This document shows, in pieces, positions 38,680-49,548 of a stretch of DNA of 64,000 nt. This DNA comes from Clostridiales bacterium. Lineage in GTDB: Bacteria > Bacillota > Clostridia > Lachnospirales > Lachnospiraceae. Each line of letters opens with the position of its first letter. The stretch's first letter is position 1. The notes beneath the pieces are model-generated. The model was not told the origin of the DNA. It did no database searches and worked only from the letters and a program-made list of their open reading frames with translations. The stretch lies in assembly GCA_021199255.1 (NCBI GenBank), contig JAJQIK010000088.1:1-64000 (forward strand), in the 5' to 3' direction. The translations under genes were made by a program, and so were the position numbers.

Positions 38680-38709
38680 TTGACTTTGCTATATGATAAA
38701 ACATATAAT
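38680..38709 (+). promoter_or_regulatory. Near-consensus promoter of three-gene cassette
   Basis: TTGACT (38680-38685), 18 bases, TATAAT (38704-38709): 5/6 and 6/6 matches. It lies 51 bases before the first cassette gene. Confidence 0.75.
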
Positions 38710-38760
38710 ATTAAGCAGCAAAGTTAAATTTGATTACAGAGAAGAAAGGCTGAATGTTTT

Positions 38761-39471
38761 ATGGCACAGCAAACCCATTTATGGATTGAAGATAGGGAAG
38801 GAAAATCCGGTTTTGTTTTTTGGAAGAAATTTATGCAAGAACTGTTTCCCGACATTCTTATTGAAAGTAAAAAGAATAGCAGTGAACTGGTAAAAGCAGT
38901 GAAAAATATATCAGACACCGACAAATATATTGTTGCGCTGGATAATGCATTTGATAATCCGGAAATTTATCGGGAACGGCGCAGATTTAATAAGTACGCT
39001 GTAGGCAAAAACGTTATAAAACTGGATTTGATATGTTTTGAATATTTGCTGCTGGAGTTTAACCAATTGCTTGATTGGATATATGCTGAGGAAGACGAGT
39101 TTAGGCAAAAACGGGAAAAAGCTATCATTGCAAGAAATGCATTGATCAATATCATATCGAGTGGCAGTTTGAATTATAAATGGGCGGAAGAAATAGCGCA
39201 ATATGACGATAGTCTTGAAAAACGAAATGTTGAACAGCTTTCGGCGAAGCTTTTATATGATTTGACTCGCAATACGGGTTTTGAGGTATCAAAGGGCCGA
39301 ATTGGTGACTGCTGGGTGAAATCCTGTTGCGAATGGGGAAACAGGCAGGAAAATGATATATGCGGATTAGATATTTCAAGATTATCCCTTATGGACAAAA
39401 TGAAATCTATCTATTATGGAACGTCTCTCAAAGCAGAATTGCTTAAGGCGGGATTGGAGGTTGCGGTGTGA
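38761..39471 (+). CDS. Cassette gene 1, possible TOPRIM-like protein
   Basis: This 236-residue soluble protein is not assigned to a family with certainty. The start THLWIEDREGKSGFVFWKKF, with a strand then a conserved-looking Glu, is followed by YIVALDNAFDN with Asp residues. This resembles a TOPRIM-like core (strand-E ... strand-DxxxxD), as in OLD-type and DUF4435-type proteins. The rest is helical with a Cys-rich DCWVKSCCEW stretch. Its stop overlaps the next start by four bases (GTGA). It is AT-rich compared with flanking genes, which suggests transfer. Confidence 0.6.
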   Translation: MAQQTHLWIEDREGKSGFVFWKKFMQELFPDILIESKKNSSELVKAVKNISDTDKYIVALDNAFDNPEIYRERRRFNKYAVGKNVIKLDLICFEYLLLEFNQLLDWIYAEEDEFRQKREKAIIARNALINIISSGSLNYKWAEEIAQYDDSLEKRNVEQLSAKLLYDLTRNTGFEVSKGRIGDCWVKSCCEWGNRQENDICGLDISRLSLMDKMKSIYYGTSLKAELLKAGLEVAV

Positions 39472-39911
39472 TTCGAGTTTATAAAAATCGAAATGATATA
39501 CCAGAAGATATGGAATATATACAGCTTAACGATATATATTTCAATGAAACCACTTGCGATATGCTTGATGAAAGAGCAAAAGATATTATACGAAAAATAG
39601 ATTCGTCGGAACTCATAAGTAAGTACAAAATCAGAACCAGATTTGGCGACGATATTTTAAATATCGACAAGATATCATCTGGCTGTAAAACGGTGCTCAA
39701 TGTTCTTTATAATCCTGATAAAGCGTTTTGGTTACTTGATTGTGGAGAAAATGCGTTGGAAGTTCTGATGGGGATTGAAAAAGGGAATGTGTTTAGTGAA
39801 ACGCCGATGCTCCCGTTTGAATTGAGTCCTGTAGAAGCATATACGGCGGGTAATAGCAGGATAATAGACGACTATGAAGAGTTAAAGGAGTGGTGGCGTC
39901 ATGAAGAGTAG
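39468..39911 (+). CDS. Cassette gene 2, DUF4869-like protein
   Basis: The 147-residue product starts at GTG 39468, behind TTGGAGG, overlapping gene 1. The segments DIYFNETT, IDSSELISKYKI and GCKTVLNVLYNPDKAFWLLD, followed by CGENALEVL, match my recollection of the DUF4869 pattern. The function of that family is unknown. It overlaps the next gene by 11 bases, so the three products are probably made in fixed ratio. Confidence 0.65.
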   Translation: MIRVYKNRNDIPEDMEYIQLNDIYFNETTCDMLDERAKDIIRKIDSSELISKYKIRTRFGDDILNIDKISSGCKTVLNVLYNPDKAFWLLDCGENALEVLMGIEKGNVFSETPMLPFELSPVEAYTAGNSRIIDDYEELKEWWRHEE

Positions 39912-40329
39912 GCCTGTAGTTATGGAACATTATCATAAGGTTCATACAACCTATGTAGTGGATTTTACCTTTATTAATAACATCACCTTTCTCACAGGCG
40001 ATTCCGGGCAGGGAAAATCTGCGGTGTTTTCTTTCTTCGAGGAAGATGCGGCCAGGAATCCACAGTTGCTTTGTTTTAATTATTTAGATTGGCGGAAGGA
40101 TATTGCGCATACGATTGCCGACGCCGAAGGCAAGCTGATAGTTGTTGATAATGCTGATTTACTGCTGACCGATGAAATGAGAAAGCATATTGCGTTGGAC
40201 GTTAAAAATCAGTATCTGTTAATCGGCCGTGATCCCAGGAATTTGTATGCTACAAAGGATAACATTTTTGAACTTGTTAGTGAGAGGAAGGGAGAAAAGA
40301 CAGAATTTAGGATCGAGGCGTTTGAATAA
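39901..40329 (+). CDS. Cassette gene 3, minimal P-loop ATPase
   Basis: The 142-residue protein has a clear Walker A (TGDSGQGKS) at about 32-40 and a Walker B strand (KLIVVDNAD) near 79-87. A sensor-like strand follows ([13 protein letters not shown]). At this length it is only a bare nucleotide-binding core, so it likely acts as a subunit with the two upstream products. It ends 121 bases before glyA, whose own promoter follows. Confidence 0.75.
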
Positions 40330-47225: not shown

Positions 47226-47260
47226 ACAGGGCTTTGCGTGCAGGATACGCGGAGCCCTGT
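47226..47260 (+). terminator. Hairpin after sensor gene
   Basis: ACAGGGCTTTGCGT, loop GCAGGAT and ACGCGGAGCCCTGT form a 14-bp stem with two G-U pairs; the following T-rich stretch is interrupted. Confidence 0.65.
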
Positions 47261-47371
47261 TGCTTATATATTTATTTGTAAGCGGGCATCCTGTTAAACG
47301 AGTGTGACAACTTCCATTTTTATGGGGAAGATATACGGAGCAATCGGAAGTTGATAAAAAGGGAGAAATTT

Positions 47372-48151
47372 ATGTGTGATAAAAAATCAAATGAAGATAC
47401 AATCAAAGAATTATCTCTTATGCTTATGTATCTGACAAGAAAACAAGATAATAACAAATTTTGCAGATACAGAGAGTTGAGCTGGAAGGGCTATGACTTT
47501 GATGTTATGGGGAAGCTTGAGGAAGAAGGATTATTGTGGCAGCCGAGAAGTCAAAGAGGGTATGACAAATATTTGTATCTTACAGAAGCTGGAAGAAATC
47601 AGGCGAAGGTACTGCTGGAACAGTATGGCTTTTCTGACAAGCGAATGTTAGAAAAATTTGAATTTCGGACAATCCATATATCAGAGGCGAAACAGGCGGC
47701 AGATATAGAACAGGTATGCTTTCCGCCGAATGAAGCATGTTCAGAAAAACACATGATAGAACGCATTGAGACAGCCTCTGATTTATTTTTGGTGGCAATT
47801 GATAAAGAAAACGGAAGGATTGCCGGTTTCTTAAATGGAATTGCAACAGATGAATATCAGTTCAGGGATGAGTTTTTTACGGATGCATCTTTACATCATC
47901 CAAATGGTAAAAATATTATGCTGCTGGGATTAGAGGTTCTTCCGGAATACAGAAAACAAGGATTGGCGCATGAAATTGTTTTTCAATATTTGCGCAGAGA
48001 AAGCGACCGAGATAGAAAAATGGTTACTTTGACTTGTTTGAAAAATAAAGTAAAATTTTATGAAAAGATGGGTTTTATGGACAGAGGGCTGTCTGGTTCG
48101 ACATGGGGAGATGAGGAGTGGTATGAGATGACATACGTTCTTAATATATAG
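47372..48151 (+). CDS. DUF6429-like winged-helix + GNAT acetyltransferase
   Basis: The 259-residue protein is a fusion. Residues about 8-90 (IKELSLMLMYLTRKQ.., WKGYDFDVMGKLEEEGLL, YLTEAG) resemble DUF6429, a small winged-helix-like domain. Residues about 100-259 are a GNAT N-acetyltransferase with the acetyl-CoA motif GLEVLPEYRKQGLAHEIV and a late VKFYEKMGF. The start is ATG 47372, behind AAGGGAG. The acceptor substrate is unknown; the second gene after the hydrogenase sensor suggests no pathway. Confidence 0.8.
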   Translation: MCDKKSNEDTIKELSLMLMYLTRKQDNNKFCRYRELSWKGYDFDVMGKLEEEGLLWQPRSQRGYDKYLYLTEAGRNQAKVLLEQYGFSDKRMLEKFEFRTIHISEAKQAADIEQVCFPPNEACSEKHMIERIETASDLFLVAIDKENGRIAGFLNGIATDEYQFRDEFFTDASLHHPNGKNIMLLGLEVLPEYRKQGLAHEIVFQYLRRESDRDRKMVTLTCLKNKVKFYEKMGFMDRGLSGSTWGDEEWYEMTYVLNI

Positions 48152-48191
48152 AAGGTTTTAATCATATAAAAGAGATTATGGAGAAAGCAAG

Positions 48192-48698
48192 ATGAATGCA
48201 GGAATTTATATTTTAGAATGTATTATTATGTGTATTGTATTTGGAACCGTTGTTATGAGTATTATAATAAAAAATCCAGTTTCGATGATTTCTGATTATC
48301 CACCTGAAATACAAGATAGATACTATCAAACGCAAGGAAAAGCGTTTGAGAAAGAAAAAATGACAATTGGAGCAATGATTAGAAAAATTATTGCTTTAAT
48401 AATATTTGCTGCTGTATTTGCGTGGATGGTGCATATTGCTGGTGGAGATACTTTTTTAAAAGCACTTTTCATGACATATGGATACATATTTGTTATATTT
48501 GCGTTTGATACATTCTTTTTGGACTGGGTTTTGTTTGCAAATATAAAGAAAATAAGACTACCTGGTACAGAGGATATGGATAAGGAATATCATCAAAAAT
48601 GGTTTCATGTTAAAGCCTGTTTTCCTATGATTCCTGTTTTTTTAATTGGCGGATTGGCTATTGCGGGTATTGTGTTATTAATTTGGCAGAAAGGATAA
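48192..48698 (+). CDS. Four-helix membrane protein, unknown
   Basis: The 168-residue protein has four hydrophobic segments (about 5-25, 65-85, 90-115, 140-165) and the conserved-looking cytoplasmic motif NPVSMISDYPPEIQDRYYQT. Proteins of this kind are widespread in Firmicutes and have no known role. It follows the acetyltransferase gene by 40 bases. Confidence 0.8.
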   Translation: MNAGIYILECIIMCIVFGTVVMSIIIKNPVSMISDYPPEIQDRYYQTQGKAFEKEKMTIGAMIRKIIALIIFAAVFAWMVHIAGGDTFLKALFMTYGYIFVIFAFDTFFLDWVLFANIKKIRLPGTEDMDKEYHQKWFHVKACFPMIPVFLIGGLAIAGIVLLIWQKG

Positions 48699-48704
48699 TT
48701 GAGC

Positions 48705-48776
48705 ATGAGATTGTTAATATATGGCGCTGGTGTTCTTGGTGGTAATATGGCTCATTATCTTAATAAAAGACATTGA
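48705..48776 (+). pseudogene. Start of a ketopantoate reductase-like gene, truncated
   Basis: ATG 48705 opens 23 codons reading MRLLIYGAGVLGGNMAHYLN, the NAD-binding start of the ApbA/PanE family, then stops at TGA 48774-48776. Nothing further of the family follows. It is a broken remnant, probably cut by the insertion described next. Confidence 0.7.
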
Positions 48777-48839
48777 AACAGACTCGGCAATAGCAATGCT
48801 GGGAATAGGGCTTGCATGTCTCGCAATATCACTTTTGCA

Positions 48840-48962
48840 ACAGGAGCAACGTATGCTTGTCGGCGCACGTCAACTATTGAAAGCGCCGAATATAAGAGCC
48901 GTATGTTCGGTACTGTGAGAGGACGGCGGCTAATCACCGTCTCCTGCTCGGTTTTCCGCCTT
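48840..48962 (+). other. Possible group II intron remnant
   Basis: The block containing AAGAGCCGTATG, then ACTGTGAGAGGACGG and ACCGTCTCCTGCTCG resembles the conserved segment at the start of domain IV in bacterial group II introns. No reverse transcriptase is present. It directly follows the broken reductase start, consistent with a decayed insertion. The similarity is from memory and weak. Confidence 0.35.
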
Positions 48963-49095
48963 TTTATGGAACGTAGGGAATGGAAGTAAACTGACAAAAT
49001 AAACTGTAAACAATAGGAAATAAATGTTAAAAATGTAAAAATAATCAATAAAAAGAAATAAATTGCAAAAATATCAAAAAAATTATAAAAATGTG

Positions 49096-49123
49096 TTGAC
49101 AAATAAAAAAGAGATGATATAAT
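49096..49123 (+). promoter_or_regulatory. Consensus promoter without an adjoining gene
   Basis: Perfect TTGACA (49096-49101) and TATAAT (49118-49123) with a 16-base spacer. No large ORF follows for over 400 bases. Confidence 0.7.
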
Positions 49124-49129
49124 AAAGAC

Positions 49130-49430
49130 ATAAACAAACAAATTCACATAGATATTCTAAAGAAAGAGAGGTACAGTCCACCGGAAACATAAACAAAACT
49201 TCCAATTAAAGTACAAATGAATAAGGAACCAATGATAAAACAAAGAACGTAGTCGAGTACATAAGAAAAGGTAACGAATCACAGAAGAGAAAATGAAAAA
49301 GACGTTACAGTATATGCATACGAAAGAAGAGTGGAAAGAGTACGGAAGATGAAAATTGGAGGTAAGACCATTGGATAGTATAGTATAGAAGCGGGTATTG
49401 ATTCTGAAGAGAATTGGTACCCGCTTCGCT
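49130..49430 (+). ncRNA. Candidate untranslated, purine-rich RNA
   Basis: Downstream of the consensus promoter lies a 300-base A/G-rich segment without a long reading frame, ending in a 10-bp perfect hairpin (GAAGCGGGTA, 49388-49397, with TACCCGCTTC, 49418-49427; inner ATTC/GAAT stem). No poly-T follows, so the hairpin may be a processed end. The segment does not resemble an RNA class I can name. A 19-codon frame at 49293 is the longest credible ORF inside. Confidence 0.45.
49293..49352 (+). CDS. 19-residue small ORF in candidate RNA
   Basis: ATG 49293 follows AGAAGAGAAA and encodes a charged peptide beginning MKKTLQYMHTKEEW. It is too short to judge by itself; the weak purine-rich ribosome site and codon sequence allow translation. 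Could be a dual-function RNA. Confidence 0.25.
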   Translation: MKKTLQYMHTKEEWKEYGR

Positions 49431-49548
49431 GTTGCAAAAAATGTGAATATTTGATGAAAATGTCTGAATTTGTGCGAATTTAAGGTGGCTTTTTCCGCTA
49501 AAATAGGTTATAGTATACTTGCAAATGTACGCAGGAATGGAGATTATT

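What the first reader, a model, noticed from the sequence alone, without database searches (positions are those of the whole stretch)
38680..40329. AT-rich three-gene cassette: possible TOPRIM-like, DUF4869-like and bare P-loop ATPase
Three overlapping genes (4- and 11-base overlaps) share one near-consensus promoter. They encode a protein with a TOPRIM-like acidic pattern, a DUF4869-like protein of unknown function, and a 142-residue ATPase with clear Walker A and B. The cassette is more AT-rich than its neighbours and is inserted just before glyA. Tight coupling of a putative nuclease-like protein with an ATPase recalls defence or toxin-antitoxin systems, but I know of no described system with this composition.
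Basis: partly seen in the sequence, partly recalled or inferred. Interest (0 to 1): 0.76.

Follow-up and report, generated by a model that had tools for sequence, protein, structure and literature searches.

The report
Mobile three-gene ATPase–effector cassette, undescribed
A small block of three overlapping genes, found together in many gut bacteria and apparently able to move between genomes, looks like an ATP-controlled switch holding a costly effector protein, perhaps for defence against phages, but what it does is untested.

Summary
Three overlapping AT-rich genes (P1 236 aa, P2 147 aa, P3 142 aa) follow a near-consensus promoter and are inserted before glyA: 14 of 29 congeneric loci show the empty site, and 0 of 29 match the trio in the 1.5 kb before glyA. 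The trio is a real unit: in 8 of 8 P1-found loci (the window's included) P2 and P3 lie beside P1. Three arrangements exist: P1-P2-P3, P2-P3-P1, and P2 followed by a P3-P1 fusion. P2 is DUF4869. P3 is a mini P-loop NTPase with Asn at the Walker-B glutamate; the fusion keeps Glu. P1 is a remote, sub-threshold relative of DUF4435 (AriB, the Toprim effector of PARIS), but the second Asp of DxD is absent in 54 of 54 distinct P1s, so Toprim membership is not met by sequence; no structure could be predicted. Copies of the 1.6-kb unit about 90% identical sit in non-alignable flanks. P1 is lost more often than P3 (24–29 of 77 against 6 of 79), as a costly effector would be. Best reading: an ATP-gated effector cassette, probably defence. 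A full-text search for DUF4869 found no paper.

The parts
38680..38709 (+). promoter-like TTGACT-18-TATAAT, 51 bases before the P1 start
   Evidence: 11 of 12 consensus matches; site count not above shuffles
38761..39471 (+). P1, putative effector: remote DUF4435 (AriB Toprim) relative; invariant E10 D11, D61, D65 N66, F93 E94; C184, C189, C190 (C201) possible metal site (guess)
39468..39911 (+). P2, DUF4869 protein; conserved S-x-G-C-K-T and CG-x-N motifs; GTG start, 4-base overlap with P1
39901..40329 (+). P3, mini P-loop (AAA_22/AAA_14/nSTAND-like) NTPase; Walker A GDSGQGKS, Walker B DNAD (Asn in place of the catalytic Glu); 11-base overlap with P2
38464..40364 (+). approximate limits of the inserted DNA relative to the empty site of congeners (tightest in L198, where 47 bases take its place)

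Best explanation
A horizontally mobile, ATP-gated effector cassette, most likely of the anti-phage / abortive-infection kind. P1 is the effector: a costly protein derived from or related to the DUF4435 (AriB-type Toprim) effectors, with an added Cys cluster in its C-terminal half. P3 is a minimal P-loop NTPase and P2 (DUF4869) its constant partner; together they form the control module that holds P1 silent and releases or activates it on an unknown trigger. Shown by sequence: the three genes are one co-inherited unit, P3 and P1 can be one polypeptide, near-identical units sit in different places, and P1 is the part most often lost. Inferred: that P1 is toxic or nucleolytic, that P3 binds ATP with little hydrolysis in the split form (Asn for Glu), that P2-P3 restrain P1, and that the trigger is a phage.
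For: P1-found loci: P2 and P3 beside P1 in 8 of 8. Fusion: hhalign match of P3 to the N-terminal half (prob 98.7, E 1.5e-15) and of P1 to the C-terminal half (prob 88 and 90, E 3.3e-7 and 1.7e-7) of the ~320-aa protein that follows canonical DUF4869. Co-inheritance: Mantel r 0.88-0.93 between P1, P2 and P3 distances in 42 loci, null maximum 0.38. P2/P3 overlap is 11 bases in 65 of 73. Mobility: pairs among L043, L050, L055, L061, L064, L072 are 89-93% identical over about 1.59-1.63 kb (one pair 1.73 kb) and stop aligning near the P1 ribosome site and the P3 stop; empty site in 14 of 29 congeners. Effector-first decay: in 80 P2-found loci P1 is lost in 24 of 77 (up to 29 with five that the script counted as intact) and P3 in 6 of 79; P1 lost with P3 intact 19, reverse 0 among loci where both can be judged. 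dN/dS medians of P2 and P3 stay at 0.13-0.18 in pairs with and without P1 loss. Defence-type neighbours: Septu-like pair in L068 (by eye), RloA/RloB-like ORFs in L183 (by eye), TOTE primase domain in 2 of 140 neighbours.
Against: No toxicity, nuclease or phage data exist. Second Asp of DxD absent in 54 of 54 distinct P1s and the fusion reads D-G-A-A or D-A-A-A. The DUF4435 match never passes the 27-bit cut-off (best 26.5), 39 of 45 P1s show none, and a thin DUF4435 alignment gave no hhalign signal. PADLOC has no match for the window's P1. Neighbour enrichment is only suggestive: 131 PADLOC families among 140 neighbours against 72 among 140 random ORFs, with mad3 hitting 4 in both. Loci were chosen on P2, so P2 loss is under-counted; with P3 as query P2 is absent in 4 and broken in 2 of 30. 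P1 is longer and at the cassette edge, which favours its loss; some loci are near-duplicates. L068 keeps part of P1 (to the contig end) while P3 is gone. The P2 median dN/dS is higher where P1 is lost (0.18 against 0.13).
Confidence: 0.45

Rival explanations
1. A toxin-antitoxin or selfish addiction cassette with no role against phage: P1 is the toxin, P2-P3 the ATP-dependent antidote, kept after P1 decays because other copies of P1 exist in the genome or pool.
For: P1 lost with P3 intact (P2 intact by selection) in 19 loci, reverse 0; several copies in some genomes (10 DUF4869 matches in G657); mobile unit that often starts at the ribosome site.
Against: In the canonical DUF4869 arrangement the supposed antidote P3 is fused to the toxin, so only P2 could be an antidote; PARIS, a similar-looking pair, was shown by gene deletion not to be a TA system (PMC9122126, passage). 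The window's own genome has one copy over the cut-off.
Confidence: 0.25
2. P1 is no longer an enzyme: a Toprim-derived domain that lost DxD and serves as a binding or scaffold part, the cassette acting as a sensor or regulator.
For: Second Asp of DxD missing in 54 of 54 distinct P1s and in the fusion.
Against: E10 and D11 (49 of 49 that reach them), D61, D65 and E94 (54 of 54) stay invariant, which is hard to explain without a metal or catalytic role; the fusion keeps E163 D164, D209 and E240 in 18 of 18.
Confidence: 0.17
3. A housekeeping or metabolic accessory operon of Lachnospiraceae unrelated to conflict.
For: Concentrated in one family: PF16163 in 78 of 397 family genomes against 1 of 398 (the window's own) drawn over the phylum, although named loci outside the family exist, e.g. 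Ruminococcus bicirculans.
Against: Patchy, scattered insertion, empty sites, frequent decay, multi-copy genomes.
Confidence: 0.08

Closest known systems
PARIS (AriA ATPase + AriB DUF4435 Toprim tRNase)
   Same: An ATPase coupled to a DUF4435-type protein; known as separate genes or as a fusion (PMC9122126, passage); P1 has a motif-1 Glu (compare AriB E26, PMC12409363) and matches DUF4435 weakly.
   Different: P3 is a 142-aa AAA_22/nSTAND-like NTPase, not AAA_15/AAA_21; third gene DUF4869; P1 lacks the second Asp of DxD and has a Cys cluster; below the published PARIS detection scores.
RloA/RloB, OLD, Gabija GajA (ABC ATPase + Toprim)
   Same: General plan of ATPase plus Toprim-class effector (recalled).
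   Different: No ABC ATPase found in the trio; RloB matched 1 of 45 P1s, at E 0.09.
DUF4869 (PF16163)
   Same: P2 is a member; 57 of 57 P2s scanned match it at E<=1 and the window's passes the cut-off.
   Different: No paper in the held library contains the name; the window's split type lies at the edge of the family (33.9 bits against about 200 for canonical members).
Minimal STAND/AAA NTPases (AAA_22, AAA_14, nSTAND3/5)
   Same: Walker A, Walker B and a sensor-like strand (label by recall) in about 115 residues.
   Different: Stand-alone, no other domain in the 142 aa; Asn for the catalytic Glu in the split types.

Membership tests
PARIS | DUF4435 at 27 bits or more (published rule, PMC9122126) | tested here: not met
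   16.6 bits in the window; best among 40 genomes holding the trio 26.5
PARIS | AAA_15 at 32 bits or AAA_21 at 27 bits (same rule) | tested here: not met
   no AAA_15/AAA_21 match for the window's P3 at E<=5; best among 5 fused relatives AAA_21 19.1 bits
PARIS | growth arrest on sensing a phage protein; tRNA cleavage by the effector | not testable with these tools
   needs experiments
TOPRIM | motif-1 glutamate after a hydrophobic strand | tested here: met
   E10 in 49 of 49 distinct P1s that reach that residue; 5 of 54 lack it through truncation
TOPRIM | DxD motif | tested here: not met
   D61 in 54 of 54, position 63 S/A/V/P in 54 of 54; D65 invariant instead
TOPRIM | Toprim fold | not testable with these tools
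DUF4869 (PF16163) | Pfam score over the gathering cut-off | tested here: met
   33.9 bits against 28.9
P-loop NTPase | Walker A and Walker-B aspartate | tested here: met
   GxxxxGK[ST] in 72 of 73 split P3s; AAA_22 20.9 bits in the window is under the cut-off of 27, 27.1 in L116's fusion is over it
P-loop NTPase, hydrolytic | catalytic glutamate after the Walker-B aspartate | tested here: not met
   window DNAD; arrangement-A P3s DN in 67 of 73, DH in 1, 5 rows mis-caught by the pattern; arrangement B DN in 4 of 4; fusion E89 in 18 of 18
Toxin-antitoxin | toxin harmful alone, neutralised by partner | not testable with these tools
   only indirect: asymmetric decay

The most novel reading that the evidence does not exclude
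A new, undescribed class of ATP-gated defence system in which a hydrolysis-poor mini-ATPase (Walker-B Glu replaced by Asn when the effector is a separate protein) forms, with DUF4869, a lock on a Toprim-derived effector with a re-arranged active site (E-D, D-x3-D-N, F-E). The S-x-G-x-K-T motif of DUF4869 might act as an ABC-signature-like element supplied in trans, so that P2 and P3 together would be a split ATPase head.
Probability: 0.12. Interest if true: 0.82.

Novelty: new variant of a known kind. Interest (0 to 1): 0.58.

Why it matters
In a sample of the window's family (Lachnospiraceae, judged from titles of matching records) 78 of 397 genomes carry DUF4869, and no paper in the library searched names it. 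If it is a defence system it adds a new control module to the ATPase-plus-Toprim class. The natural pair of split (Asn) and fused (Glu) forms makes the role of ATP hydrolysis in holding such effectors directly testable.

Tried and rejected
PARIS membership: rejected on published scores.

P2 as a relative of phage tail proteins: the 10 viral-contig hits share an SSGCKTLQN stretch in large phage ORFs (two read; 'tail tube' is recall); 5 of the 10 loci reach the P2 profile at E<=1, with 13-15 bits. The scan had selected on that motif, so I judged it chance.

Phage or plasmid carriage: two 'phage' records matched P2; L130 has rapZ-, whiA- and dnaE-like ORFs beside the pair (by eye). No plasmid match.

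P2 as AriA-like: PADLOC AriA matched 3 of 57, best E 0.011; PDC-S06 matched 8 of 57, best 2.6e-4, not followed up. Pfam gives no ABC family beyond one SMC_N at 0.12. Kept only in the novel case.

P1 against a thin DUF4435 alignment (6 rows) by hhalign: no signal (one column-shuffled null scored 126.96, an outlier I did not explain). PADLOC on 45 P1s: weak hits only, best Cas2_II 0.0041 in 5. Solved structures: one chance-level hit each for P1 and P2; KaiC and other P-loops for P3.

Defence-neighbour test: 131 against 72 PADLOC families. The tool tells families, not members; 140 of 151 nearest ORFs were scanned (11 left out for size or redundancy), and the control ORFs come from 20 stretches of 15 family genomes that themselves carry DUF4869. 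Only suggestive.

First P1 profile was contaminated by fused proteins and was rebuilt from unfused ones. The 59 P1 rows hold five repeats; 54 distinct rows were recounted. Of the 30 P3-query loci, 14 are genes already in the P2-query set, so the two surveys are not independent.

Full report
WHAT IS THERE. The window holds three overlapping genes on the + strand: P1 38761-39471, P2 39468-39911 (GTG start) and P3 39901-40329, with overlaps of 4 and 11 bases. A TTGACT-18-TATAAT site at 38680-38709 precedes them (11 of 12 matches; sites of this general kind are no more frequent here than in shuffles). GC is 0.37-0.41 against 0.486 for the window. In congeners the same flanking genes meet without the trio. 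Of 60 genus genomes searched 55 have glyA; 30 loci were fetched, one of them the window's own. In 14 of the other 29 the left flank lies 47-193 bases from the glyA-side match, and in 0 of 29 does tblastn find a trio protein (the loci reach 1.5 kb before glyA). Of the remaining 15, 11 carry by eye a lipid-kinase-like ORF there and L194 another ORF; I did not read L202, L207 and L218.

A CONSERVED UNIT IN THREE ARRANGEMENTS. Searching 194 genomes with P1 alone gave 8 with a match, the window's included, and in all 8 loci P2 and P3 relatives lie beside it. A genome-contig scan with P2 gave 165 confirmed places, of which the best 80 were kept. Arrangement A, the window's, is P1-P2-P3. Arrangement B (L006-L008, L097) is P2-P3-P1. 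Arrangement C is canonical DUF4869 followed by one ~320-aa protein. Its N-terminal half matches P3 (hhalign probability 98.7, E 1.5e-15) and its C-terminal half matches P1 (probability 88 and 90, E 3.3e-7 and 1.7e-7). In 30 canonical loci 17 have the fused frame intact, 10 have pieces of it and 3 have none in the stretch held. L097, L109 and L116 carry two units side by side, each with one part broken or missing. P1, P2 and P3 distances agree across 42 loci (Mantel r 0.88-0.93, null maximum 0.38 in 1000 permutations); this null does not correct for shared ancestry of the hosts. DUF4869 is in 78 of 397 family genomes but 1 of 398 drawn over the phylum, that one being the window's own. Named loci outside the family exist, for example Ruminococcus bicirculans (L116).

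THE PROTEINS. P2 is DUF4869 (57 of 57 match at E<=1). P3 is a minimal P-loop NTPase: AAA_22 at 20.9 bits in the window (cut-off 27) and 27.1 in L116's fusion, with AAA_14 and nSTAND3/5 also near. Its Walker-B position reads DNAD in the window; in arrangement A it is DN in 67 of 73, DH in one, and five rows were mis-caught by my pattern; in arrangement B DN in 4 of 4. The fusion has Glu in 18 of 18. So the catalytic glutamate is kept when effector and ATPase are one chain and lost when they are separate.

P1 AND TOPRIM. DUF4435 matches the window's P1 at E 0.007 (16.6 bits) and 6 of 45 P1s at E<=1, best 5.8e-6. I take this as remote homology to the AriB family. AriB is a two-metal Toprim tRNase that needs E26 (PMC12409363, passages and section 24). 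But the Toprim DxD is not kept: over 54 distinct P1s D61 is invariant, residue 63 is never acidic, and D65-N66 are invariant (59 rows with five repeats). E10-D11 are invariant in the 49 that reach them, F93-E94 in all 54. C184, C189 and C190 are in 54 of 54 and C201 in 53; a metal site is my guess. No structure could be made.

MOBILITY AND DECAY. Pairs among L043, L050, L055, L061, L064 and L072 are 89-93% identical over 1.59-1.63 kb (L050/L055 1.73 kb), and the alignments stop close to the P1 ribosome site and the P3 stop. L064 sits at the end of an ABC-transporter frame. I saw no recombinase among the three genes; the edges vary by tens of bases between pairs. In the 80 P2-selected loci P1 is lost in 24 of 77 that can be judged (3 at contig ends). 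Five more counted as intact carry a deletion or stop (L085, L097, L080, L105, L100), giving up to 29. P3 is lost in 6 of 79. P1 lost with P3 intact: 19; P3 lost with P1 intact: 0; both: 5. Outside this count, L068 keeps part of P1 up to the contig end and lacks P3. Some of the 80 loci are near-duplicates. With P3 as query (30 loci, 14 of them genes already in the first set), P2 is absent in 4 and broken in 2, and by my reading P1 is lost in 11 of 28 that can be judged. dN/dS medians are 0.13-0.15 for P3 and 0.13-0.18 for P2, the higher P2 values in pairs with P1 loss. Since P1 losses look independent and possibly recent, this does not prove selection on P2-P3 without P1.

SURROUNDINGS. Immediate neighbours are diverse. 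By eye a Septu-like ATPase-HNH pair follows P2 in L068; L065 is 99.6% and L052 about 91% identical to it there. RloA/RloB-like ORFs precede an orphan P3 in L183 (by eye); Pfam finds a TOTE primase domain in 2 of 140 neighbours. PADLOC gives 131 families among 140 neighbours and 72 among 140 random ORFs, a suggestive but crude difference.

HOW IT PROBABLY WORKS. I think P1 is an effector that costs the cell, P3 an ATP-dependent switch and P2 its constant partner. The plan resembles PARIS, an ATPase with a DUF4435 effector known both as two genes and as a fusion (PMC9122126, passages). It is not PARIS: both published score rules fail. Whether it protects from phage or is an addiction cassette cannot be decided from sequence. 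No paper in the held library contains 'DUF4869', and one contains DUF4435, TOPRIM and defense together.

VERDICT. A real, conserved, mobile gene trio of unknown function; a new variant of the ATPase-plus-effector kind.

Noticed in passing
window 39901-40329 and L116:4664-5620: Walker-B glutamate is Asn in split P3s but Glu in the P3-P1 fusion; a type-linked swap.
   Followed up: partly
L130 and L131 (GenBank MT835885, MT835722): Records filed as bacteriophage carry DUF4869 plus the fused protein; L130 also has rapZ-, whiA- and dnaE-like ORFs (by eye), so it is probably a bacterial contig.
   Followed up: partly
L097:2927-6862: Two trios of different arrangement (P2-P3-P1, then P1-P2-P3 with truncated P1) lie about 1.1 kb apart, followed by a macro-domain-like ORF.
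   Followed up: no
L183:172-1905: An orphan P3 directly after RloA/RloB-like ORFs (by eye), without P1 or P2 in the stretch held.
   Followed up: no
L068:18-3252: P1-P2 followed by a Septu-like ATPase and HNH ORF (by eye) in the place of P3.
   Followed up: no
G657: One genome with 10 DUF4869 matches; within-genome spread not examined.
   Followed up: no
window 47250-49500: A second AT-rich stretch (GC down to 0.30) in the window.
   Followed up: no
upstream of glyA in congeners (L193, L196, L199, L204, L208 and others): The same intergenic place is either empty or holds a lipid-kinase-like gene (11 of 29 loci, by eye) in other species of the genus.
   Followed up: partly
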